Positions 8,183 to 54,519 of a stretch of 56,024 bases of DNA are shown here, piece after piece. A program made the translations under genes and the position numbers. How positions within the stretch are numbered: the first letter of the stretch is position 1; each line of letters opens with the position of its first letter. Source of the DNA: Roseburia sp. (lineage in GTDB: Bacteria > Bacillota > Clostridia > Lachnospirales > Lachnospiraceae); NCBI GenBank assembly GCA_023662875.1, contig JAMPIG010000011.1, forward strand, positions 1-56,024. Direction: 5' to 3'. Under the pieces are notes generated by a model that was given only the letters and a program-made list of their open reading frames with translations, did no database searches and was not told the DNA's origin.

Positions 8183-8971
8183 TTAATAGTCCGAATGGTC
8201 CAGCCAGTCGTGGGCCGGTTCCACAATCCGCGTCTTGCGCCAGGGGTCTCCCTCCAGATGCCGGATCAGCCAGACGTAATACATCCGGTATCCCGGGGCC
8301 GCCGCCTGCTGGTGGGCGTGCATGGGAGTGATGGCCAGGCAGCCCTGATCCTCCACCCGGAAGCACTCCTCCCCCACAAAGCCCACGCCGAAGCCCTGGG
8401 GCTTGTCAAACTCGTAGTAATACAGCTCCGGCTGGGGATGATAGTGCGGCGGATAGCTGGACCAGCAGCCCGGCTTATGGAAGACCTCCCCCATCACCAG
8501 ATTGGAGTAAGGCGCGTTTTCATAATCAAAGACCGTCAGCACCTGCCGATGCGCCGTACCCTCCCACTGGGTTTTGCCAAACTCCTGCAGGGTACACATT
8601 TCCGGCGTATAAAACACCGTGTCGAACTCTCTTTCGTTCGTGGTCTGCTGGATCAGCACCCGGCTGTCCTCTCCCGCCGTGATCGTGATTTCCTTTCCCC
8701 GGCAGCAGTGCAGGACGTAAGACTTATCCAGAAAGACGCTACGCCTCTCCGCACTCTTTTCTTTTCCCTCGAAGCCGAAAACCACCTTCCCGGCCAGCAG
8801 CATCACCGCCGTCTCCTTCTCCGGTGCCAGAATCGCAAGCCGCTGCCCGGCGGACAGCTTCTGCACCCGCACATCCATCAGCATCTGGCTGTTTTTCCCC
8901 TGGCCGCCCTCGCCGTTTTCCTCGCAGAGAATTTTTTCTCCCTTTTCGTTAAATTCCGGATTTTCGTACAT
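8183..8971 (-). CDS. iolB: 5-deoxy-glucuronate isomerase
   Basis: About 262 residues from the ATG at 8971, which has AAGGAGA just upstream; an earlier in-frame ATG at 9007 is less well placed. The protein is a double cupin. The second half carries the conserved His/Glu metal cluster in HYHPQPELYYYEFD and the HAHQQAAAPGYRMYY segment. It isomerises 5-deoxy-D-glucuronate to 2-deoxy-5-keto-D-gluconate. It lies between iolC and the inserted acetyltransferase gene. Confidence 0.93.
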   Translation of the reverse strand: MYENPEFNEKGEKILCEENGEGGQGKNSQMLMDVRVQKLSAGQRLAILAPEKETAVMLLAGKVVFGFEGKEKSAERRSVFLDKSYVLHCCRGKEITITAGEDSRVLIQQTTNEREFDTVFYTPEMCTLQEFGKTQWEGTAHRQVLTVFDYENAPYSNLVMGEVFHKPGCWSSYPPHYHPQPELYYYEFDKPQGFGVGFVGEECFRVEDQGCLAITPMHAHQQAAAPGYRMYYVWLIRHLEGDPWRKTRIVEPAHDWLDHSDY

Positions 8972-9135
8972 GTCCGATCTCCTTTCCTTTTTTCGTCCGA
9001 GAAGCACGCCTTACCCGGTTTTTTTCTTCTGCCTCGGACTCATTCCCTCCGGCTCACCTGCCGCCCCGGACGCCTTCCCCCGGCTCATCTGCCGCCTCGG
9101 ACGCCTTCCCCCGGCTCATCCTGCAGGCGCGTCCG

Positions 9136-10227
9136 TCACGCCCGCGCCACCATCTCGCCGTACTTCTCCTTCTCCTCCCGGATAAACCGCTCCACTTCCT
9201 CCAGCGTCGGCATGGCCGCCGAGCAGCTGTGGGCGGAAATCAGCATGGAGGCCGACGCGGAACCGTACTCCAGCGCCTGCGGCACGCTGCAGCCGTCGAT
9301 CAAAGCCCGGATAAAGGAGGAAGCATACCCGTCCCCGCCGCCGAAGCCCTTCAGGGCGTTCGTGGGAAAAGGCTTTACCGCGTAATGATTCCCGTCGCAG
9401 GTATAAGCGGTGGAGCCCTCCTTGCCGTGCTTGATCACTACAATCTTACAACCGTAGGACTGCCAGTATTTTGCGCTCCTGCCGTCCCTGGAAGAACCGG
9501 CTTCCGACTGGTTCCCTTCCATGGAATTGCCCTCCGCAAAATCAGCTTTCGAAGAATCCCCCTCCCCGGAAAGCCCGGTCAGCCGCTCCGTCAGGTCGAA
9601 CTCCTCCCGGGAACCTAAGATCAGATCGCTCTCCTTTGCCACCGTGGAATAATAAATCGATATCTCGTCCGGGTTTTTCCAGGTGTACGCCCGATAATCG
9701 ATGTCAAAGATCACCGCGACCCCGTTCTTTTTCGCCAGCATCACGGCCTTCAGCGCCGCCTCCCTGGACGGGCTGGCCGCCAGCGCCGTCCCGGAAATTA
9801 ACAGCGCCTTCGCCTTTTTGATATACTCCTCGTCCACATTCTCCGGCTCCAGCATCAGATCCGCCACGCCGTCCCGGTACATCAGAATCCGGCTCTCCGA
9901 GGGACTTAAGATCTCCGTGAAGGTCAGCCCCAGATTCTCGCCGTTTTTACAGCGGGTAATGTGGCTGGTATCAATTCCCTCCTTCTCGAAATAGTGCGTC
10001 ACATAATCTCCGAACTGATCGTCGGACACCCTGGCGATAAACCCGACCTTCTTCCCCAGCCGCGCCATCCCCACCGCGATATTGGCGGGAGAGCCGCCCA
10101 GATACTTGTTGAAATTGCTGCTCTCCTCCAAAGGGCGGTTCAAATCCACCGGGTTAAAATCGATGGCCACCCTGCCCAGCAAAATCAAATCGTACTCCTT
10201 TGCCGGATCAAACGTAATATACTGCAT
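9136..10227 (-). CDS. iolC: 5-dehydro-2-deoxygluconokinase
   Basis: About 363 residues from the ATG at 10227 (GGAAAGGAG upstream). It is a PfkB/ribokinase-family sugar kinase: GGSPANIAVGMARLG near residue 45 binds the sugar, and LKGFGGGDGYASSF near residue 310 is the PfkB signature with the catalytic Asp. It phosphorylates 2-deoxy-5-keto-D-gluconate. Residues about 217-252 are a Ser/Glu/Gly-rich low-complexity insertion that makes the protein about 25-35 residues longer than usual IolC. It is the first inositol gene on the minus strand. No clear sigma-A promoter was seen in the gap 10228-10410. Confidence 0.92.
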   Translation of the reverse strand: MQYITFDPAKEYDLILLGRVAIDFNPVDLNRPLEESSNFNKYLGGSPANIAVGMARLGKKVGFIARVSDDQFGDYVTHYFEKEGIDTSHITRCKNGENLGLTFTEILSPSESRILMYRDGVADLMLEPENVDEEYIKKAKALLISGTALAASPSREAALKAVMLAKKNGVAVIFDIDYRAYTWKNPDEISIYYSTVAKESDLILGSREEFDLTERLTGLSGEGDSSKADFAEGNSMEGNQSEAGSSRDGRSAKYWQSYGCKIVVIKHGKEGSTAYTCDGNHYAVKPFPTNALKGFGGGDGYASSFIRALIDGCSVPQALEYGSASASMLISAHSCSAAMPTLEEVERFIREEKEKYGEMVARA

Positions 10228-10410
10228 CGTACCACTCCTTTCCTTGCTGTCCCTTTTCATTTCCTGTTTTATTTCATTTCCCTGTTTCACTTCAGCACCC
10301 TGACGCGCATACCAATCAAAATTTGCCCTATGATGACAGACCGGCAGGTCTGGCATTGGAAGCTTACCTCCAAACTTGCATCCTCTGCTTTTCTGCAAAT
10401 CGAAGCCGCG

Positions 10411-14909: not shown

Positions 14910-14940
14910 TTCCGAAAAGGGAGAAAATCTTTGCACGCTT
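14910..14940 (-). repeat. Inverted-repeat arm and dispersed 3' motif
   Basis: TTCCGAAAAGGGA (14910-14922) is the exact reverse complement of TCCCTTTTCGGAA at 14000-14012, so the pair brackets the 180-aa gene. AGAAAATCTTTGCAC (14922-14936) recurs at 41541-41555, there also just past the stop codon of a minus-strand gene. The gap 14647-14909 holds no gene I can support. Confidence 0.45.
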
Positions 14941-16604
14941 CACAGCTTCATCATCGACCTCTTATCCCGAATCTCGATTACATGATCAAAGGCGGTATAA
15001 TCCGTAAAATACAGGGTGGCGGCTCTGGGAGTCTTCGCTTCGCTGTCCTCCTTGCCCTCGGTGAAATGATGCTCGCCAAAGCCCGGGCCCACGATCAGGG
15101 CGTCCCGGCCGTTCCCTACCTCCGCATAACCCTTCTTCAAAACGATGACCTCGCTGCCGGTAAGAGGCATCTCCACCGATTCACCAGTCAGGAAATTCAC
15201 CCCCGTAAAGGCCAGCTCGAGCCGCCAGGGCGCGCCCTCCACGCCGGAGGTCTTCACCCGGATATCCACGCCGTTTTCCGCCTCCTTTACCCAGACGTCG
15301 ATCTGCATATCCGGCCCCAGCTTTTTCTCCCGGGAGGCGTTATCCATCTTCCACCAGTCGCTGGTCTCCGGCTTCTCCTCAAAGGGAAGATAATACCACC
15401 CCCGCATGGTCTGGGAAAGATGATATTCCCCTTCGGAGAGCCGCTCCATCTTCTCGCTCTTAAAGGCCCGGTGCTCGCAAAAGCTCCCCGCCACCTTCAT
15501 CTCCAGCTTGACCGTCCCGTTATGGAAATAAAAGAAATTGGACTTCCCGTTCATCACCGTATAAGTGTACCGGCCCCTCTGGGCTCTGGCAATCCCGGAC
15601 TCCGGATAATAACGGCCAAAGTCCGGCCGCTTATAGCTGCCCTCTACCTCCAGCGTCCTGTACTCCGGATGCAGCATAAACCAGATCAGGAAATCCGGCG
15701 AAGTAATCTGCCGCCTCTCGATGATCTCAAAGAGCGTGTTGCACATCTGCAAAAGCTCCGGAATATCATACTTCAGTCCCATCTTCAGATATTCCAGATA
15801 ATAATCCTTGGGGTACATCAGCCGATCCTTGTCAAAGCGGGTGGAATTTGCCGTAAACACACTGTCGTCCGGCTCCCAATAGGTCAGCATCATCCGCAGA
15901 TTGCGGACGGCGTTCTGATCGTAAGTATCGTCCCCCGTGGCCTCCGAGAGCAGGATCATCGCGTCATTGTTGACCCGGTTGTAATTTCCGGCGGACTTCT
16001 CCGCAAACTCCCCGTCCCCGTTACAGTCAATCCCCTCGTTCAGATAAGTAAAGGCGGCCTCCTCCATCTCCTTACTGTCAAACAGCCTGCTGCAGGCCAT
16101 CAAAAGAGACGCGATCGCCCAGCGGTGATTCGGCGTATGGAACCCGCCCTCCAAAAGCCCGTAAGCCCCCGCCCGGACAATACGCTCCGTCTTCTCCAGA
16201 ATCTGCCGCTCTCCCTCCGGCAGCTTCTCGCTGCCCGCCCGGCCCGCCAGATACTCGTAGACGGGAAGCAGCTTTTTGATACAGAAGGCCGTATCCGGAG
16301 CCGAAAAGAAATTACAGGTGATAAAGTCAAACAGCCCGTTCCCATGCTGCACCCGCATCACATAGTCCAGCCCCAGCAAAATACTCTCCAACACCCGCGC
16401 ATTATGATAATAAACCGTATCCTGATTACAATAGGCCGCCGCCATACTCGCCGCCCGATAAATCGAGAATTTCGCCTGCACGATCCCCGTCGGATCCGCA
16501 AAGCCCCCGTACCTGGGACTAGCCGGATCCAAAATCTGAATCTCCAGCGATTTCACCACCCGATTCTCGGTATCCCGAATTATCCTCTGATAATGCTTCT
16601 CCAT
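14940..16604 (-). CDS. Polysaccharide-lyase-like (heparinase II/III-type) protein
   Basis: A 554-residue protein with no signal peptide. The first 350 residues look like an alpha/alpha-toroid (FSIYRAASMAAAYCN, LLGLDYVMRVQHGNGLFDF, RVNNDAMILLSEATGDDTYD). The C-terminal 200 residues look like a beta-sandwich (YTYTVMNGKSNFFYFHNG, VDIRVKTSGVEGAPWRLELAF). This two-domain layout is that of heparinase II/III-like and related lyases, and of some uncharacterised glycan enzymes. Candidate catalytic residues are the His/Tyr in GGFHTPNHRWA and the Tyr of GRYTYTVMNG (inference). It lies downstream of the GH38 and HAD-GH105 genes and is probably intracellular. AGGAGGAG precedes the start. Confidence 0.55.
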   Translation of the reverse strand: MEKHYQRIIRDTENRVVKSLEIQILDPASPRYGGFADPTGIVQAKFSIYRAASMAAAYCNQDTVYYHNARVLESILLGLDYVMRVQHGNGLFDFITCNFFSAPDTAFCIKKLLPVYEYLAGRAGSEKLPEGERQILEKTERIVRAGAYGLLEGGFHTPNHRWAIASLLMACSRLFDSKEMEEAAFTYLNEGIDCNGDGEFAEKSAGNYNRVNNDAMILLSEATGDDTYDQNAVRNLRMMLTYWEPDDSVFTANSTRFDKDRLMYPKDYYLEYLKMGLKYDIPELLQMCNTLFEIIERRQITSPDFLIWFMLHPEYRTLEVEGSYKRPDFGRYYPESGIARAQRGRYTYTVMNGKSNFFYFHNGTVKLEMKVAGSFCEHRAFKSEKMERLSEGEYHLSQTMRGWYYLPFEEKPETSDWWKMDNASREKKLGPDMQIDVWVKEAENGVDIRVKTSGVEGAPWRLELAFTGVNFLTGESVEMPLTGSEVIVLKKGYAEVGNGRDALIVGPGFGEHHFTEGKEDSEAKTPRAATLYFTDYTAFDHVIEIRDKRSMMKL

Positions 16605-16679
16605 CTCCGCATCTACTCCTCCTGTTTTCCTTTATTCCGCTGTACCTAGCGCGCCGTCTACCTGCGCCACTTATCGCAC

Positions 16680-17238
16680 CTCGGCGCGCCGCCCCCTGCT
16701 GCAATCCAGTCGGCGGGCGGCCTGCGTTCCCGCGAGGACTGTGCCGGACGCCGGTGCTTAGCGAGGTACTTTCGAGCTTAGCATCCGCTGCGTCCGGCCC
16801 CCAAGCGCGAGCGTGTCCGAGCGGGAATGCCGACCGTCCGTCGGCGTCACTCGCCGCATCCTCGGCGCGCCGCCCCCTGCTGCAATCCAGCCGACGGACG
16901 GCCTGCGTTCCCGCGAGGACTGTGCCGGACGCCGGTGCTTAGCGAGGTACTTTCGAGCTTAGCACCCGCTGCGTCCGGCCCCCAAGCGAGAGCGTGTCCG
17001 AGCGGAAATGCTGACCGCCCACCGGCGTCACTCGCCGCATCCTCGGCGCGCCAGCCCCTGCTGCAATCCAGCCGACGGACGGCCTGCGTTCCCGCGAGGA
17101 CTGTGCCGGACGCCGGTGCTTAGCGAGGTACTTTCGAGCTTAGCACCCGCTGCGTCCGGCCCCCAAGCGAGAGCGTGTCCGAGCGGGAATGCTGACCGCC
17201 CGCCGACGTCACCCGCCGCATCCCCGGCGCGCCACCCT
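16680..17238. repeat. 181-bp tandem repeat array, three full units plus a stub
   Basis: Units begin at 16680, 16861 and 17042 with CTCGGCGCGCC, and a stub begins at 17223. The period is exactly 181 bp, not a multiple of 3, so it is unlikely to be coding. Each unit is itself palindromic. CCGGACGC (16744-16751) pairs with GCGTCCGG (16790-16797), enclosing GGTGCT...AGC stems in units 2 and 3. GCGTTCCCGC (16724-16733) pairs with GCGGGAATGC (16821-16830), with one G-T pair. A third pair of arms lies at about 16711-16720 and 16834-16844. The array fills the whole gap between the GH38 gene and the lyase-like gene. Confidence 0.92.
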
Positions 17239-17241
17239 GCC

Positions 17242-20200
17242 TCACCCGCAGTCCAGCATCACCGTCTTAATCTCAAACCCCCGGAAATCCAGGCTCACGC
17301 TTCCGTCCCGAATCTCCAGCTCCTCCTGCTTCTCCTCCAACAGATTACAGCTCCAAACCCGCTTCACCGCCTCCGGCAGCGAAAGAACCGTCCTCCCGGC
17401 GCACCCCTTCGACTCATAGAGCCGCAGCACCACGCCCTTTTCCTCGTCAAAGGCCAGCTTACAGGTCTCCAGAACCGCGTGTCCGCCCTCCAAGCCGAAG
17501 AAGGAAACCTGCTCCTCTACCGCATCCTCTCCATACATGTCGGAACCTGATTTTCCGGCTTCCTTACTGCAACGGTCAGATTCACATCTTCCGGCTTCCC
17601 GTTCACAGCTGTCAGCAACACACTCCCCTGCTTTCTGATCACATTCGCCGCTCGCAGCCGTATGCTCCTTCTCCTGACGTCCACTCCGGGCCGTCTCCAA
17701 AACCTCCACATTGCACTCGTAAGCTTCCTCGGTTACCCTGCTCTGTACGAAAGGCCCGCTAAAGGGCAGAATCGAATAGGTAAAACGATGCTCTCCCCTG
17801 TCCGCCGTCGCGTCCGGAAGCACCGCCGCTTTCAGCAGCGTCAGGGAAAGCCTGCTGTCCTGGGCGGAAATGCCGTATTTGCAGTCGTTGATCAGGGCAA
17901 AACCGTTCTCCCCGTCGGTCAGCGCCGCGTATTTATGATGGCTGGTCTCGTACAGATCCCGCTCGTACTGCCGGGATCTGTGGGTAGGCCGTCGGATATA
18001 GCCAAACTGAATCTCCTCCAGCACCTCCCTGGTAAATACCGCCGTGGGAAAATCCGCCTTCAAGACCCTGTGCCGCTCCTGCCAGTCCACCCACGTCTCA
18101 AAGTCGATCCGGGGACTGTCCTTTCGAAACCGAATCTTCTGCACCGCGGTAAAATAAGCCTCCCGACGCTCCACCGTCACGGTAAGTCCGCCGTCCGGCA
18201 GACGCTCCGCCCGGAAAATACAGTCTTCCCCCAGCTCCTCCGGGGTCTGCTCATACATCCGCCCTAACTCCCACGCGTCATATCCGATATTGACATCCCG
18301 GTACAGCCGCCATTGGTTCAGGGGCGCTTTTGCGTACTCGAAGCCAGTCCCCTGATCCCGCAGGCTTACGATCCGCCCCTTTTTGTCAATTTTGGCGCAA
18401 TAATACAGATTCTCGAAGATCAGTCCTTCCGCCTCGAAATTTTCCGTTTCGGATGCTTCCGCCACATCCTCAAAACTTTCGATCTCTGAAACTGCCCCCG
18501 CAAGACTCCCTGCTTCAGCCTCCGCACCGTCTGACTCTCCCGCAGTCCCTTCCTCCCGCAGCCGCAGATATCCGCAGGCCGGGAGCGTCAGCCCCTTCGC
18601 CCGCCTCTCCCAGCTTAGAGAGTTAAACAGAGCCCTGCCGCCCGCAAGCCTGTTCAAAAGCTCCTCCGCCAGCGTCCGGCTTTCCTTTTCCGCCCGGTTC
18701 AGCGCATCCAGAGCCTCCTCGTTCACCCTCTGAATCGAGCTTCCCGGCAGGATGTCGTGAAACTCCTGCAAGAGCAAAAGCTTCCAAAGCTCCTCCAGCT
18801 TCTCTAACGTCTCCTTCTCGCCTTCCGTCCGGCCCGCAAGCCGCAGCAGTCCGGCAAGATACTCCGCCTCCCGCAGGGCGTACTCCGCCTTGCGAACACC
18901 CCGCTTGATCCTGGCCTGGGAGGTATAGGTGCCCCTGTGCCAGGCAAGGTACAACTCGCCGTAATAAACGTTTCGGATCCTTTTTCCGTCCAGCCTGTCG
19001 AAAAAGTCCGCCGGACTCTCCATGGCACACCGGGGCGCTCCCTCCAGATCCCGGCAGCGCTCCGCCGTCTCCGCCATGATCTCCGTGGGGCCGCCGCCCC
19101 CGTCCCCGTAGCCGAAGGGAAAGAGGAAGGTATCGATCTCCTGCCGCTGGTTCCGATCCTGCTCCCATCTCACCCGCAGCGCCCCCGGCGTGAAGATCTC
19201 GTTGTTTTTCTTGTAAATATGGGACAGGATCCGAGTTCCGTCGATCCCCTCCCACCAGAACAGATTATACGGGAACTGCTCGCACTCCGGGTCGGCCCGC
19301 AGCAGCTTCTGGGTTGCAAAATAAGGAACCCGGCAGCCCGCCATAATCTGGGGCAGCGCCCCCGAAAAGCCGAAGGTGTCCGGCAGCCAGGCGACCTTAC
19401 TGTCTACGCCCAGCTCCCTCTGATACCATCGCTTCCCCAGAACAAACTGCCTGACCAGGCTCTCGCCCCCCGGCAGATTCATATCGCTCTCCACGTAAAC
19501 CGCGCCCTCCGGCAGAAACTGCCCCTTCCGGACGCCCTCCCTCACCCTGTCGTACAGGTTCGGATACCAGGCCTTCAAGTCCTCCAGCACGGTAGGCGCG
19601 CAGAGCAAAAACTTATAATTCGGATAACGCTCCGCCAGCGCCGCCTGGTTGGAATAGGTTCTGGCCGCCTTCCTCCTGGTCTCCTCCAGAGGCCAGAGCC
19701 AGGCCAGATCCAGGTGGGACTGGCCGATGATCGTATAATTCGGTACGGTATCCCCGTTCTTTTTTTCCAGAAGAGGCTTCAGGATCTCCCGACCACGACG
19801 GACGCTCTCACTGCGCGCAGGCTCATCCGCCTCGAAATCCGCCCGGAGGGTAAACTCCTGCAGCGCTTCCCCGATCTTCATGGTGCGCAGCTCGCTCTCC
19901 GGCATAGCCTTCCAGAGTTCATACAGGGTATGATAATCCGCGTAGGCCGCGAACATCTCCTCATCCCAGATTCCGTAATGGCTGCTCTCCACCCGGCACT
20001 GCCTCTCCGGCGGCTCCGGAACGGAGATCTGGTCTCTGGTATAAATCCCGCCGTTCTCCAGCCGGACGCCGTGTCCCGCGTAGCACTCCGCGTAAATTTC
20101 AAAGAGCTCCCCCGGAACCGCCCGGGCGGTCAGTTCTACCATATTATGCTGCTTATCAATCGATCCCGCCTCCCGGCCGTTTACAAAGACCAGCATCTCC

Positions 20201-20472
20201 GGCCCTGCGCCCAGATGCAGCAGGATCCGCTTTCCCGCCGCCTCCTGCGGCAGAAGAACCTCTGTCCGGAACCACCCGTACTCCCACTTTCCGCCCCAGA
20301 GGCTCCCTTTGGGAAAAGGCCGGAAGGAACGCTCCGCCGCCTCAGCCAGGGACAACTGTTCCCTGGTGACAAACCCGGTCAATTCGATCTCTCCAAGGGA
20401 CGTATAAAGAAACCTTTCAAAGGCTTCATCCCATATCCTTAGCCGTTCGTCCCACTGTCTCCCGATCTTCAT
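17242..20472 (-). CDS. Alpha-mannosidase, glycoside hydrolase family 38
   Basis: About 1076 residues from the ATG at 20472 (GGGGAG upstream). The GH38 catalytic domain shows QSHLDLAWLWP with zinc His/Asp near 254, the nucleophile Asp in WLPDTFGFSG near 365, and a further zinc His in EFHDILPGSS. The C-terminal half is the usual beta-rich region. There is no signal peptide, so it acts in the cytoplasm on imported oligosaccharides. Two low-complexity insertions are unusual: an acidic Glu/Ala/Ser stretch before GLIFENLYY, and a Cys/Glu/Ser-rich stretch of about 60 residues near the C-terminus (from about 920). It follows the HAD-GH105 gene by 52 nt. Confidence 0.93.
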   Translation of the reverse strand: MKIGRQWDERLRIWDEAFERFLYTSLGEIELTGFVTREQLSLAEAAERSFRPFPKGSLWGGKWEYGWFRTEVLLPQEAAGKRILLHLGAGPEMLVFVNGREAGSIDKQHNMVELTARAVPGELFEIYAECYAGHGVRLENGGIYTRDQISVPEPPERQCRVESSHYGIWDEEMFAAYADYHTLYELWKAMPESELRTMKIGEALQEFTLRADFEADEPARSESVRRGREILKPLLEKKNGDTVPNYTIIGQSHLDLAWLWPLEETRRKAARTYSNQAALAERYPNYKFLLCAPTVLEDLKAWYPNLYDRVREGVRKGQFLPEGAVYVESDMNLPGGESLVRQFVLGKRWYQRELGVDSKVAWLPDTFGFSGALPQIMAGCRVPYFATQKLLRADPECEQFPYNLFWWEGIDGTRILSHIYKKNNEIFTPGALRVRWEQDRNQRQEIDTFLFPFGYGDGGGGPTEIMAETAERCRDLEGAPRCAMESPADFFDRLDGKRIRNVYYGELYLAWHRGTYTSQARIKRGVRKAEYALREAEYLAGLLRLAGRTEGEKETLEKLEELWKLLLLQEFHDILPGSSIQRVNEEALDALNRAEKESRTLAEELLNRLAGGRALFNSLSWERRAKGLTLPACGYLRLREEGTAGESDGAEAEAGSLAGAVSEIESFEDVAEASETENFEAEGLIFENLYYCAKIDKKGRIVSLRDQGTGFEYAKAPLNQWRLYRDVNIGYDAWELGRMYEQTPEELGEDCIFRAERLPDGGLTVTVERREAYFTAVQKIRFRKDSPRIDFETWVDWQERHRVLKADFPTAVFTREVLEEIQFGYIRRPTHRSRQYERDLYETSHHKYAALTDGENGFALINDCKYGISAQDSRLSLTLLKAAVLPDATADRGEHRFTYSILPFSGPFVQSRVTEEAYECNVEVLETARSGRQEKEHTAASGECDQKAGECVADSCEREAGRCESDRCSKEAGKSGSDMYGEDAVEEQVSFFGLEGGHAVLETCKLAFDEEKGVVLRLYESKGCAGRTVLSLPEAVKRVWSCNLLEEKQEELEIRDGSVSLDFRGFEIKTVMLDCG

Positions 20473-20524
20473 ATCTGCTCTCCCCGGGGCCTTTATCGCC
20501 CCTGCGCTTTTTCTCAATCTTCCC

Positions 20525-22147
20525 CTACCTCATGCTCCGGTACTCGATCAAAAACAAAATCGCCAGCGCCTGTCCGTAGGGCATGGATTTTAATTCGATT
20601 TTCTTATAGAAATCCTTCGTGACGCGTCCCATGGGCGTCCCGTAGGAAACCTGATTTACCACGCCGTCGTCGTCTATGTAATTTAAGATCGGCTCCAGCG
20701 CCTTTTCCGCCGTCTCCAGAAATGACTCATCCGCCAGCCCGTCCTTCACCGCTTTTAAGATTCCGTAGGCAAAGCCGCAGGTGGCGCTTGCCTCCACATA
20801 GGAATCCCCGTCGTCCACCAGCGTATGCCACATCCCATTCTCCGCCTGAAAGCGCGTCAGGCTCTCGATCTGCGCCCGCAGGGAACCGACCAGCAGTCTC
20901 CTCACCGCCCCGCCGCAGCCGCTGACGGAAAGGAACTCCGGAATTGCCATGGTGATCCAGCAGTTTCCCCGGCCCCAGAAGGCTCCCGCGAAGTTATTGC
21001 GCTCTTTAAAGGTCCAGCCGTGATACCAGAGGCCGGTGACCCGATCGCTGAGATACCGGTCGTGCAGCAGGAATTGATACTCCGCCTCCTGCTCCATCTC
21101 CTTGTTCCCCAGGATCCGGCCCATGTTCGCCAGAAACAATACCGTCATATACAGGGTGTCGTCCCAGAGCTCCTGATCGTTCCGGGAATCCGAGGTCATA
21201 TGCTGGAAGCCGCCCTCCTGCGTCCTGGGGAAGGAGCTCATAATCTCCTCCGCCGCCGCGATACAGGGCTGCATATATTTCTCCTCCCCGGTGTACTCCG
21301 CCAGGAAGGACATCGTCAGGTACGGCGCGGCTGTATTGACGTTCAGCGCCGGAAAACCGATTTCGATCTGCCGGTCATAATATTTTTTCAGCGTATCCAG
21401 AAACCGCTCCTCCTTCTTCGCCAGGAACAGCTTCCAGAGCCCGTACAGGCCGACTCCCTGCGTCCACTCCCAATACCGGTATTTTGCGATATCGTCCCCC
21501 GCCAGATTGTGGCTCTCCATATTCTTCAGGAAGGTATCGTCCGTCTCGTAAAGAATCCGGGAAAAGGACTCCGCCAGCCTCCCGAGCTTATCGTCGATCC
21601 GCCGGTTCCGCTCCTTCCTCCGGCGGCATTTCTCCTCCAGCTCGCCGATCAGCCCTTTCAGCTCCTCCGGGGTTCTCACCCGGTAATCAGGCTGCCAGTC
21701 CGGCTCTTCCATCTCATGAAAGTACCGGGGGGACCAGTCCAGCCAGACGGAGGTAAGCCCGTATCGGTTGGCTCCCGCCACATCCTTCTTCAGATTGTTT
21801 CCGATCATAACGATAAAGGGCTTGTCGTCGTCGGTAAGCCCCATCTTTTCCATCGCGGTATCGAACATGGATCTGGCCGGCTTCTGCTCTCCCACAACCT
21901 CCGACACAATCCACTGCTCAAAGCAATAGCCCAGCCCGTTTTTCCGGTACACATTCTGAAAGGACTCCCACTCCCCGTCCGCCACAAGGGCAATGCGGTA
22001 GCCCTCCTCCTTCAGCGCCTTCAGTACCTCTCCCGCGCCGGGAATAAACTCCGCCCCGGTAACGATTCCCCTCTCGTCATAAACCTGGGTGCTCTCGTCG
22101 ATGATTGTGTCCCCGCTGTCCGTGAATAGGATCAGATTCTTGCTCAT
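20525..22147 (-). CDS. HAD-like domain fused to GH105/GH88 unsaturated uronyl hydrolase
   Basis: A 540-residue two-domain protein. Residues 1-175 are a HAD fold: motif I LFTDSGDTIID, motif III Lys in GEQKPARSMF, and motif IV MIGNNLKKDVAGA. The position two after the motif I Asp is Gly rather than Asp, so phosphatase activity is doubtful. Residues about 195-540 are a GH88/GH105 barrel like YesR: LNVNTAAPYLTM, LWDDTLYMTVLFLA with the likely catalytic Asp, FHGWTF-type WYHGWTFKERNNFAGAFWGRG, and WITMAIPEF. GH105 enzymes hydrolyse unsaturated rhamnogalacturonan or pectin fragments inside the cell. It is first in a minus-strand operon with GH38, behind a plausible promoter. Confidence 0.88.
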   Translation of the reverse strand: MSKNLILFTDSGDTIIDESTQVYDERGIVTGAEFIPGAGEVLKALKEEGYRIALVADGEWESFQNVYRKNGLGYCFEQWIVSEVVGEQKPARSMFDTAMEKMGLTDDDKPFIVMIGNNLKKDVAGANRYGLTSVWLDWSPRYFHEMEEPDWQPDYRVRTPEELKGLIGELEEKCRRRKERNRRIDDKLGRLAESFSRILYETDDTFLKNMESHNLAGDDIAKYRYWEWTQGVGLYGLWKLFLAKKEERFLDTLKKYYDRQIEIGFPALNVNTAAPYLTMSFLAEYTGEEKYMQPCIAAAEEIMSSFPRTQEGGFQHMTSDSRNDQELWDDTLYMTVLFLANMGRILGNKEMEQEAEYQFLLHDRYLSDRVTGLWYHGWTFKERNNFAGAFWGRGNCWITMAIPEFLSVSGCGGAVRRLLVGSLRAQIESLTRFQAENGMWHTLVDDGDSYVEASATCGFAYGILKAVKDGLADESFLETAEKALEPILNYIDDDGVVNQVSYGTPMGRVTKDFYKKIELKSMPYGQALAILFLIEYRSMR

Positions 22148-36507: not shown

Positions 36508-37203
36508 TCATCCTACCTTATACCCGTTTCCCCAGACTACCTTCAGATAGCGGGGCTCCTTGGGATTGCTTTCGATCTTCTCCCGGATGTGGCGGATGTG
36601 TACGGCAACGGTATTGTCCGCGCCGATCGCCTGCATATTCCAGATCGTCTCATAAATCTGGCTGTTGGAAAAGACCCTTCCCCTCTGCTGTACCAGCAGA
36701 CGAAGGATTTTATACTCGATGGGAGTCAGCCGGACATTCCGCCCGTCTACCGTAACCGTTCTCTGAATATCGTTAATCACTAATCCGTCTACCTTATAAA
36801 TTCTGTCGATATTAGCGCACATGTTAACCAGCTGGGTATACCTGCGGATCTGGGATTTTATCCTGGCCAGAAGCTCCAGCGGATTGCAGTCCGCCACCAC
36901 ATAATCGTCCGCTCCGGCCTCCAGGGCCATGATCTTGGCGGTCTCCGCCGACTGCTTCGACACGACGATCAGCGGAACGCTGCTGGCCTTGCGCAGTCCT
37001 GCGATCAGCTCGATTCCCCTGTCCCAGCCCTTGTCGTTCAGCGCCACATCCACCAGCATCAGATGAATTTCCTTATCCTGCAGCTTGCTTTCCAATTCCT
37101 TTTCGTCCGCCGCGACCAGCATGGAAAGCCCTTCGCCCACAAAGAGCGGCTCCATCTTCTCCGCAATCCCTGTCTGATTATTGTACACTAATATTTTTTT
37201 CAT
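36508..37203 (-). CDS. OmpR-family response regulator with degenerate receiver
   Basis: A 231-residue protein with a receiver-like domain (1-115) and a C-terminal winged-helix domain (about 130-230: VRLTPIEYKILRLLVQQRGRVFSNSQIYE, DNTVAVHIRHIREKIE, YLKVVWGNGYKVG). The phosphoacceptor position Asp52 is present in LMLVDVAL. The acidic pair of a normal receiver is replaced by Asn8-Asn9 (LVYNNQ), and the conserved Lys near 104 is Ala (YVVADCNP instead of the usual YVxKPF). Mg2+-dependent phosphorylation is therefore unlikely, and control may be by binding or expression. No histidine kinase gene is adjacent. Confidence 0.9.
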   Translation of the reverse strand: MKKILVYNNQTGIAEKMEPLFVGEGLSMLVAADEKELESKLQDKEIHLMLVDVALNDKGWDRGIELIAGLRKASSVPLIVVSKQSAETAKIMALEAGADDYVVADCNPLELLARIKSQIRRYTQLVNMCANIDRIYKVDGLVINDIQRTVTVDGRNVRLTPIEYKILRLLVQQRGRVFSNSQIYETIWNMQAIGADNTVAVHIRHIREKIESNPKEPRYLKVVWGNGYKVG

Positions 37204-37377
37204 TCCGACACTCCTTTGCTTCCTTCGGCTCTTTCCGCCGCCATTCTATCTTCGTCCGTCCTGAAATCGGAAGATTGATTTCGGAACCTATATTCTTTTC
37301 TGAAATCGAAAATCGATTCTATCCTCCAAATCCTTTTTCGTGGTTCAAGAAGGCTTCCACAATTCGACTCCTGCGTG

Positions 37378-37515
37378 CCTTGTCCCTGTGCGCCTTGTCC
37401 CTGTGCCTTGCTCCTTGTGCGCCTTGCTCCTTGTGTGCCTTGCTCCTTGTGCACCTTGCTCCTTGTGCACCTTGCTCCTTGTGCGCCTTGTCCCTGTGTG
37501 CCTTGCTCCTGTATG
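37378..37515. repeat. 16-bp tandem repeat array (9 units)
   Basis: The unit CCTTGCTCCTTGTGCG repeats nine times. Five central copies are exactly 16 bp and differ only in the last two bases (CG, TG, CA); outer copies are 13-15 bp with CCTTGTCCCTGTG. Since 16 is not a multiple of 3, it is unlikely to be translated as a repeat protein. It lies between the anti-sigma-like gene and the response regulator. It is likely length-variable by slippage (inference). The weak ORFs reading through it are not credible genes. Confidence 0.92.
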
Positions 37516-37527
37516 TCTTACTCTGCG

Positions 37528-38472
37528 TCATCGAAAATACAGCTCCAGATTCAATTCCTTCAGAATCCTCTCAATAAATTCCGCTTCCCATCCGCAGAAA
37601 TCCAGGGAGAGCTCTCTTCCCTCCAGCAGGATCACCGCGTGCGTCGCTTCGATGTGTCCCTCTTCATCCACCGTGTCAAATACTGTATAGCAGAAGCCCT
37701 GTCCGCTGATCACATTCCTCTCGTTGGCGTTCTCGCCTCCATAGGCCGTCGCGGCGGAAAAGCCCTCCACATTCCGGTAATCCGTCTGCCGGAGACAGAA
37801 GCTCCTGCCGTTTTCTGTCACATGGAGGAAAATTGTCATATCGTCCTCCGCAACCAGAACCTTACCGTTCTCCCATTCCTCCGCCAACAGAGAAAGATCC
37901 GGTATCTCCAGGGCCGCCGGAGCGTTTTGCAGGAACGCCGTCAGGCTTTCATACTCCGTCTCCTCTATCGGAATCTCAACCACATCGTCCAGCGCGGCGC
38001 CCCCGTCTTCTCCCGTGATCGTCCCCTCTGCGGGCCAAACGCCCTCCGCGGTGCCTCCCGCCTTCGCTTTTTCCCCGGTTCCAGCGTTCTCCGCCGCGCT
38101 TCTTGCGCCCGAGCCTTCTCCGGTTTCGACGTTTTTTGCATCTCCTGCGCCCGCCCTTTCCTCCGGCCAGGCAGTCTCTGCAGCTCCCGCATCAGCCGTT
38201 AAAAATCCATCTTCCCCATCCGCGCCGCTGACGACATATCCGTTCTTCCGCATCTCAAGCGCCGCGCCCACATAGCTTTTCGCTGCCGCCGTACCGGCTC
38301 CCAGCAGAAGAAAAACAACCGCGGCGGTACATCCCTTGACTGCTATACTCCGTCTTCGCCGCACCTGCATCTTATGATGATGCAGCTCATCCCGGACTAT
38401 CCCGGCGTCCATCTGAAATTCAGGCAGCTCCTGATCCACCGCCTGGCGGTATTCCTCCTGAAAATTATGCAA
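37528..38472 (-). CDS. Putative membrane anti-sigma factor
   Basis: A 314-residue protein. The N-terminal 40 residues are cytoplasmic (HNFQEEYRQAVDQELPEF, then RRRRS). One membrane segment is at about 46-65 (GCTAAVVFLLLGAGTAAA). A Glu/Gly/Ala-rich low-complexity linker follows (about 80-150), and then an external domain that resembles DUF4367/DUF4179-type modules (about 160-314). Its start overlaps the end of the ECF sigma gene by 8 nt, the usual pairing of sigma and anti-sigma. It would hold the sigma factor at the membrane and release it on an envelope signal (inference). The linker is unusually long. Confidence 0.72.
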   Translation of the reverse strand: MHNFQEEYRQAVDQELPEFQMDAGIVRDELHHHKMQVRRRRSIAVKGCTAAVVFLLLGAGTAAAKSYVGAALEMRKNGYVVSGADGEDGFLTADAGAAETAWPEERAGAGDAKNVETGEGSGARSAAENAGTGEKAKAGGTAEGVWPAEGTITGEDGGAALDDVVEIPIEETEYESLTAFLQNAPAALEIPDLSLLAEEWENGKVLVAEDDMTIFLHVTENGRSFCLRQTDYRNVEGFSAATAYGGENANERNVISGQGFCYTVFDTVDEEGHIEATHAVILLEGRELSLDFCGWEAEFIERILKELNLELYFR

Positions 38473-53436: not shown

Positions 53437-54519
53437 TTATTTGGATCTGGGCTTACGGGTTTCCGGCTTATAATCCTCGAAGAAGGAAGTAGGGCTGACG
53501 TCCGCGTAGCACTGAGAGCACATACCTTCGATCACTGCGCCGTTGTTGATCTGTACAGACTTGGACTTGATATTCCCCATAACGATAGCGGAAGCGTCCA
53601 GAATTACGGGGCCGCGCACGTCGATATCGCCCTTTACCGCGCCTGCGATCGCCGCGCTGGTAGCGGAAATGTTGCCGATGATAACCGAGCTTGCGCCGAT
53701 CTTGATCGCGCCCTCGCTGACTACCTCGCCGTTGATCTTTGCGCCCTCCGCGTAAATTTCAGCAGCCTTGGAATTCCCGTTGATGTGTCCGGTAATATTC
53801 AGCTTCCCAAGGACATCGATATTTCCGTTCACCGTGCCAAGGATATCGATCGACCCCTCCGACAGGATGTCTCCCGTAATCGCCATTCCTCCCGTAATTA
53901 CGGAAGTCTCGTCCACTGCCTCTCTCGCTATTGTCATATCCATTTTCTTTTCCGCTCCTTTGCTCTCTTCAAAAATTGTCTCTGTAAGTATTTCCTGTGT
54001 CTCCGAAACCTCCGGGGACTCCCCGACAGGCGTTTCCTCCATCGCTGCGGGCGCTTCCTCCTCTTCCGCAGCGGTTTCCTCCAGCATCTTTTCCAGCATC
54101 TTCTCCATCTCGTCGTCCACAGGCCCGTCGTCTCCCGACTCCGTATCCCAGATTCCCTCCTCAGGCGGGACAGGATCCGTCTCCCAGCCAGTTCCCTCCT
54201 CCGCCGAAACAGGTTCCGTCTCCCAGACGACATCCCCCTCCGCCGAAGCAGGTTCCGCCTCCCAAACGGTTCCCTCTCCCGCCGAAGCAGATTCCGCTTC
54301 CCAGCCGATTCCCTCCGCGGCTGCAGAAATCTCCTGCGGCTTTTCCGCCTCAGCTTCCTCGTCCTCCTCCAGACGGATGTCATCGATATTCTTCAACATT
54401 TCATCCAGAGAAATCTCCTTTTCCTCCGTCTTGCCCTCATCCCTGATCCCTTCCTCCTCCGGAATCAGCTCATTCACGGCCTGCGACAGATCCTCCTTCA
54501 AGTCCGAAAAAAAACCCAT
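53437..54519 (-). CDS. Bactofilin-family protein with long acidic N-terminus
   Basis: A 360-residue protein. Residues about 205-340 form the bactofilin beta-helix: repeated turns such as GGMAITGDILSEGSIDILGTV, GNIDVLGKLNITGHINGN, GEVVSEGAIKIGASSVIIGNI, with Gly at regular intervals. Bactofilins polymerise at the membrane and organise wall enzymes. The first 200 residues are very acidic and repetitive, with imperfect repeats of a GxxWExEPxSAE type (about 70-125). Normal bactofilins have only short tails, so this extension is unusual. It sits between pyrH and the deacetylase gene, which may be functionally linked through the wall. Confidence 0.88.
   Translation of the reverse strand: MGFFSDLKEDLSQAVNELIPEEEGIRDEGKTEEKEISLDEMLKNIDDIRLEEDEEAEAEKPQEISAAAEGIGWEAESASAGEGTVWEAEPASAEGDVVWETEPVSAEEGTGWETDPVPPEEGIWDTESGDDGPVDDEMEKMLEKMLEETAAEEEEAPAAMEETPVGESPEVSETQEILTETIFEESKGAEKKMDMTIAREAVDETSVITGGMAITGDILSEGSIDILGTVNGNIDVLGKLNITGHINGNSKAAEIYAEGAKINGEVVSEGAIKIGASSVIIGNISATSAAIAGAVKGDIDVRGPVILDASAIVMGNIKSKSVQINNGAVIEGMCSQCYADVSPTSFFEDYKPETRKPRSK

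What the first reader, a model, noticed from the sequence alone, without database searches (positions are those of the whole stretch)
16680..17238. 181-bp tandem array made of long palindromic units with swapped arms
Seen in the sequence: three full units with a period of exactly 181 bp, each a nested palindrome of about 135 nt. The outermost arms do not match within each unit alone. The right arm of unit 1 (CCGTCCGTCGG) is the perfect complement of the left arms of units 2 and 3 (CCGACGGACGG). The left arm of unit 1 (CGGCGGGCGG) is the perfect complement of the right arm of unit 3 (CCGCCCGCCG). This pattern suggests inversion or recombination between units, or selection to keep pairing across units. 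The array lies between two genes of a probable operon, so in RNA it would form huge structures and could separate expression of GH38 from the lyase-like gene. The function is unknown.
Basis: partly seen in the sequence, partly recalled or inferred. Interest (0 to 1): 0.72.

Follow-up and report, generated by a model that had tools for sequence, protein, structure and literature searches.

The report
Dispersed hairpin element, tandemly tripled
The three palindromic units are head-to-tail copies of a highly structured repeat, not found in the RNA-family library searched, that is scattered between genes in many bacteria of the family Lachnospiraceae and whose long hairpin arms differ from copy to copy yet stay complementary.

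Summary
The array is real: 3.1 x 181 bp at 16675-17237. But each unit is one complete copy of a dispersed intergenic element. A covariance model made from it finds 21 copies in this genome, 140 in one relative and matches in 95 of 299 sampled Lachnospiraceae genomes. Rfam has no credible match. The element is a conserved ~80-nt head (three-way junction, GNRA loop) on a long stem. Covariation is strong: 589 double-change cells against 160 shuffled. The arms are largely copy-specific: in relative G017, 78 of 83 copies pair over 20 bp or more with their own partner arm, but only 6 of 83 with another copy's arm. A relative with the same gene order lacks the insertion. The 'swapped arms' rest on three transitions per arm, and unit order does not change the fold energy, so recombination or arm conversion suffices. 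Best reading: a REP/REPIN-like non-autonomous mobile element whose arms are homogenised by template switching. No transposase was identified: no Y1 enzyme was found in this genome or in the copy-richest one. Mobility and arm conversion are inferred, not shown.

The parts
16679..16859 (+). unit 1, one complete element copy (left arm type X, right arm type Y')
   Evidence: covariance-model match 16724-16830, 125.3 bits
16860..17040 (+). unit 2, complete copy (left arm type Y, right arm X'-like with extra changes)
   Evidence: model match 16905-17011, 119.8 bits
17041..17221 (+). unit 3, complete copy (left arm type Y, right arm type X')
   Evidence: model match 17086-17192, 124.3 bits
17222..17237 (+). 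start of a fourth, cut-off unit
   Evidence: 3.1 copies; copies extend over 197 nt
16757..16781 (+). most conserved hairpin of the head in unit 1 (also at 16938-16962 and 17119-17143)
16709..16734 (+). left arm of unit 1 (L1; L2 at 16890-16915, L3 at 17071-17096)
16820..16845 (+). right arm of unit 1 (R1; R2 at 17001-17026, R3 at 17182-17207)
17242..20517 (-). GH38 alpha-mannosidase-like gene; its stop codon lies just beyond the array
14940..16604 (-). next gene of the same direction (554 aa, no Pfam match); orthologue in G014 at 78% identity

Best explanation
The array is a head-to-tail triplication of one member of a dispersed, structured repeat family of Lachnospiraceae. Each copy is a conserved ~80-nt head (three-way junction, a hairpin with a U.U mismatch, a GNRA loop) on a long stem whose arms differ between copies but stay complementary. 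SHOWN: the family, its covarying fold, its copy numbers, its place between unrelated genes, one orthologous site without it. INFERRED: it spreads as a non-autonomous mobile element, its folded head being recognised as single-stranded DNA or RNA by an enzyme supplied in trans. INFERRED: the arms are kept complementary largely at DNA level, by template switching between the arms. INFERRED: the swapped arms here come from crossover or conversion between near-identical units, and the array from unequal exchange. Any effect on the GH38 operon would be a side effect of a very stable hairpin just behind a stop codon.
For: Copies: 21 own, 140 in G017, 16 of 25 genomes of the genus and 0 of 16 genomes of other families of the order, 95 of 299 family genomes. 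Covariation: 28 of 32 pairs with double changes, 589 cells against 160.5 shuffled and 98-129 slid (model-fitted alignment), 66 against 19.1 on the MAFFT alignment of own copies. Arms: 78 of 83 against 6 of 83; 55 concordant, 22 single, 0 discordant changes in 27 copies. Site without the element in G014 with the same gene order. Varied neighbours. Other tandem arrays: C107 and C74 in this genome, 4.1 x 164 bp in G150.
Against: No movement was seen and no target duplication or exact insertion ends were found. No enzyme identified. The one clean element-free site could be a loss. Head-stem wobbles lean to G.T over A.C (P1 37:14, P2 11:5), which fits selection on RNA. Elements sit in a preferred place, tail to the stop codon, which a neutral insertion model does not by itself predict.
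Confidence: 0.6

Rival explanations
1. A host-beneficial structured RNA element: the long hairpin directly behind a stop codon blocks 3' exonucleases or polymerase and so tunes expression between genes of an operon.
For: Tail-side distance to a stop codon is 25-65 nt in 10/12 own, 20/28 other and 18/37 G017 cases, against 0/3, 2/15 and 4/31 on the 5' side. GNRA loop in 142 of 142 readable copies (copies were found with a model that contains this loop, which favours it). G.T exceeds A.C in the head stems.
Against: Copy number runs from 0 to 140 among genomes of one genus. Neighbours are unrelated. In G017 tails face gene starts as often as ends (50 against 37). In this window the head's folding strand is antisense to the genes. 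Arm mismatches are G.T 54 and A.C 51.
Confidence: 0.2
2. A composite unit of two divergent heads with a spacer (REPIN or MITE style) is what moves; single copies and tandem arrays are remnants.
For: 24 of 26 close neighbours in G017 are divergent, 0 convergent.
Against: Of 22 spacers compared, only one pair shares more than 24 bp (83% over 122 bp). The own genome shows tandem arrays and no divergent pair among its 21 matches.
Confidence: 0.12
3. The tandem array is an assembly artefact of a single element.
For: The genome is a 151-contig draft; repeats like this are hard to assemble.
Against: The units differ from each other at defined positions and arrays with other periods occur in another genome (164 bp in G150) and on C107 (starts 188-189 bp apart).
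Confidence: 0.03

Closest known systems
REP / BIME / REPIN elements with RAYT (TnpA-REP) transposases (PMC3116915 abstract and outline, PMC6006769 passages)
   Same: Dispersed, intergenic, palindromic, many copies per genome, inverted doublets common, tandem clusters occur, predicted to fold as ssDNA or mRNA.
   Different: REPs are about 21-65 nt with a GT[AG]G foot and a Y1 transposase; this is about 170-190 nt with a branched head and copy-specific arms, no Y1_Tnp was found in own genome or in G017, and doublet spacers are mostly unrelated.
MITEs and other small non-coding bacterial repeats such as ERIC, BOX, RUP, Correia (recalled)
   Same: Short, non-coding, dispersed, structured, intergenic.
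   Different: MITE ends are shared between copies (recalled); here the inner head is shared and the arms are not. No target duplication was found; exact ends were not mapped.
Quasipalindrome correction / template switching between inverted repeats (PMC8604942, PMC8794818: abstract and outline pages)
   Same: Predicts arm homogenisation, spacer inversion and multi-base compensatory changes.
   Different: It is a mutation process, not an element; those papers treat yeast coding genes and RNA genes, not a dispersed bacterial repeat.
Candidate structured RNAs of human microbiomes, palindromic class (PMC8040213: outline and one section)
   Same: Computationally found palindromic structured candidates in gut bacteria.
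   Different: The four palindromic examples in that section are from Bacteroidetes; the supplement lists could not be read, so overlap is not excluded.

Membership tests
REP/REPIN-RAYT system | dispersed intergenic palindromes in many copies | tested here: met
REP/REPIN-RAYT system | Y1 (PF01797) transposase in the same genome | tested here: not met
   0 in own genome; 0 in G017, G012, G005, G013, G018, one match each in G006 and G016; own and G017 are 92% and 87% complete
REP/REPIN-RAYT system | GT[AG]G tetranucleotide at the foot, 21-65 nt size | tested here: not met
   size about 170-190 nt; no constant GT[AG]G foot seen by eye
REP/REPIN-RAYT system | inverted doublets with related spacers as the replicating unit | tested here: not met
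   doublets yes in G017 (24 of 26), spacers mostly unrelated
MITE | terminal inverted repeats shared between copies | tested here: not met
   G017: 6 of 83 pair over 20 bp or more with another copy's arm; within one subfamily arms are similar but not identical
MITE | target site duplication | not tested
   needs closely related strains; G014 is too distant to place exact ends
known Rfam RNA family | match at or above the gathering score | tested here: not met
   window and 16 further loci; permissive scans gave only sub-threshold chance-level hits or none
functional structured RNA | covariation beyond controls | tested here: met
functional structured RNA | strand-specific pairing (G.U over A.C) | tested here: inconclusive
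   arms 54:51; subfamily arms 4:14; model-fitted head stems lean to G.T
functional structured RNA | transcription as RNA | not testable with these tools
   no expression data
intrinsic terminator | stem followed by a T run | tested here: not met
   0 terminator-like sites in 16400-17500

The most novel reading that the evidence does not exclude
A Lachnospiraceae-wide class of mobile structured element, moved by an enzyme unrelated to Y1/RAYT transposases that recognises the branched head, in which one arm is rewritten from the other at or after each move, so that each copy carries its own private palindrome; it settles preferentially just behind stop codons with its 3' side facing the gene.
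Probability: 0.25. Interest if true: 0.85.

Novelty: new variant of a known kind. Interest (0 to 1): 0.6.

Why it matters
A repeat family with up to 140 copies in a genome, matched in 95 of 299 sampled genomes of a major gut family (nearly all from different genera), is absent from Rfam 15 and was not found in the eight literature searches made. If mobile, it points to an unidentified enzyme. Its copy-specific but complementary arms are a natural data set for telling RNA selection from template switching as the cause of compensatory changes, which are usually credited to selection.

Tried and rejected
Rejected or unsupported: a known Rfam RNA; RAYT-driven REP; a fixed composite pair as the mobile unit; phage or plasmid origin, since there was no match in viral contigs (one exact 27-mer), plasmids or phages (blastn of one unit); selection for cross-unit pairing. 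An autonomous version with an enzyme gene between divergent heads was looked for only lightly: pair spacings in G017 and flanking proteins of 44 loci (86 of 87 listed proteins scanned, the 25 commonest of 171 families shown). A 127-aa ORF between one G017 pair looks by eye like a small lipoprotein.

Results that disagree: a first, looser arm alignment gave A.C/G.T of 148/82 in G017, 33/28 own and 34/50 elsewhere, with arms running into unrelated flanks; the stricter run gave 29/29, 11/11 and 11/14. In the 27-copy subfamily mismatches lean to A.C (14 against 4 G.T). In the model-fitted alignment A5, P1 leans to G.T (37 against 14). The strand of action is therefore left open. The orientation bias to gene 3' ends holds in own (12 of 15) and other genomes (28 of 41) but not in G017 (37 of 87). 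Genes were called with a home-made codon-usage script, so distances are approximate.

Led nowhere: a strict head pattern in 9 genomes, 0 matches; orthologues of the gene beside the C96 copy gave no usable synteny; a first length-based gene caller was unreliable. Literature searches gave no description of this repeat; the library lacks most subscription journals and supplements could not be opened.

Full report
OBSERVATION. The array is as described: three units of exactly 181 bp starting at 16679, 16860 and 17041 plus a short fourth piece, 93-94% identical, each a palindrome of about 137 nt. The cross-unit match is real: over 26-bp arms, own partners pair at 18-19 positions, and L1-R3, L2-R1 and L3-R1 at 22.

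IT IS A DISPERSED FAMILY. The whole unit matches 22 places in the own genome, including a second tandem triple on C107 and a double on C74. An exact 30-mer from the head hits 11 stretches in public genomes, titled Lachnospiraceae MAGs, [Clostridium] symbiosum, Clostridium transplantifaecale and one Muribaculum MAG contig. There the ~80-nt head is kept while the arms are unrelated in sequence and mostly 23-55 bp and nearly perfect (the C. transplantifaecale copies, L009 and L011, pair poorly). A covariance model from 19 own copies finds 21 copies in the own genome, 140 in relative G017, and matches in 16 of 25 genomes of the genus but 0 of 16 genomes from other families of the order. It matches 95 of 299 family genomes, with only the best 12 candidates per genome scored, so a lower bound. 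Rfam has no match at gathering score in the window or in 16 further loci, and permissive scans gave only chance-level hits or none.

STRUCTURE. On an alignment of 64 copies from 50 loci (44 genome or MAG handles, which may overlap), 95.4% of pair cells are standard, 28 of 32 pairs show double changes, and 589 cells carry double changes against 160.5 in shuffles and 98-129 in slid controls. That alignment is fitted to the model, which helps it; on the MAFFT alignment of 19 own copies the figure is 66 against 19.1. The small hairpin after P2' has a GNRA loop in 142 of 144 anchored copies of 145; the other two contain N. The copies were found with a model that contains this loop, so the count is not independent. 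Its closing pair varies from C-G to U-A in 6 of 64. In most own copies GA faces GA at the P1/P1b boundary. These features suggest that the + strand of the window is the one on which the head folds.

ARMS. In G017, 78 of 83 copies have arms complementary over 20 bp or more with their own partner, and 6 of 83 with the arm of a random other copy; own genome 10 of 18 against 0, other genomes 23 of 37 against 0 (copies sharing a left arm were counted once: 88 to 83, 19 to 18, 38 to 37). In one G017 subfamily (27 copies) arms differ by 0.81 of 15 positions from their own partner and by 3.75 from other copies; 55 changes are concordant in both arms, 22 single, 0 discordant. Mismatches over all strict arm alignments are G.T 54 and A.C 51, unlike an RNA stem selected on one strand, although subsets lean either way. 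I read this as upkeep largely at DNA level; template switching between inverted arms is an established mechanism for that (PMC8604942, PMC8794818; abstract and outline pages). This step is inference.

SWAPPED ARMS. The swap consists of three transitions per arm (positions 2, 5 and 9). The left arm of units 2 and 3 is also the left arm of the single copy on C59, beside an X'-like right arm, so the mismatched combination exists outside the array. Exchange or conversion between units in the near-identical head, or between neighbouring arms only 44 nt apart, gives the pattern. The predicted fold of the whole array does pair unit 1 with unit 3 and is more stable than the sum of single units, but that follows from any tandem of near-palindromes: unit order is irrelevant and a triple of unit 1 would be more stable than the real array.

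PLACE. The window gap is 637 bp; relative G014 has the same three genes (74-78% DNA identity) with a 125-bp gap and no element. For the copy on C151, none of 8 orthologous genes compared (of 10 genomes searched; one split, one only a paralogue) shows the element in the 220 nt printed behind its stop codon, judged by eye, but the next gene differs there. Neighbours are ordinary and varied: 171 Pfam families in 86 proteins from 44 loci, none in more than 3 proteins. When an element lies close to a gene end, its 3' side usually faces the stop codon: 25-65 nt in 10/12 own, 20/28 other and 18/37 G017 cases, against 0/3, 2/15 and 4/31 on the 5' side. In G017, close neighbours are almost all divergent (24 of 26) with mostly unrelated spacers (22 compared).

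MECHANISM. Most likely a non-autonomous mobile intergenic element of the REP/REPIN kind in a broad sense. Membership in REP-RAYT proper fails: no Y1 transposase in the own genome or in the copy-richest relative, though G006 and G016 have one match each, a different size and no GT[AG]G foot. A host RNA role behind stop codons is the main rival and could coexist. No transposition was observed, the enzyme is unknown and expression could not be tested.

Noticed in passing
L132 (G017:C23), in the 624-nt spacer between two divergent heads: A different palindrome with long arms and a short head, suggesting a second long-armed repeat family.
   Followed up: no
window 37377-37510: 16-bp tandem repeat, 8.7 copies, between genes 36508-37203 and 37528-38472.
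   Followed up: no
window 54148-54316 and 9031-9124: 39-bp and 31-bp tandem repeats; the first lies inside the gene 53437-54519, the second between 8183-9007 and 9136-10398.
   Followed up: no
window 20525-22147: One protein matches both a HAD hydrolase (residues 12-137) and glycoside hydrolase family 88 (207-538), an apparent fusion.
   Followed up: no
L007: A contig titled Muribaculum carries this Lachnospiraceae element, perhaps a misbinned MAG contig.
   Followed up: no
L189 (G150:C59), 584-1248: An independent tandem array of the same family, 4.1 copies of 164 bp.
   Followed up: partly
L120 (G006:C1:1723914-1724237): A Y1 transposase match with one in-frame TAG in a relative that has 14 copies of the element.
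   Followed up: no
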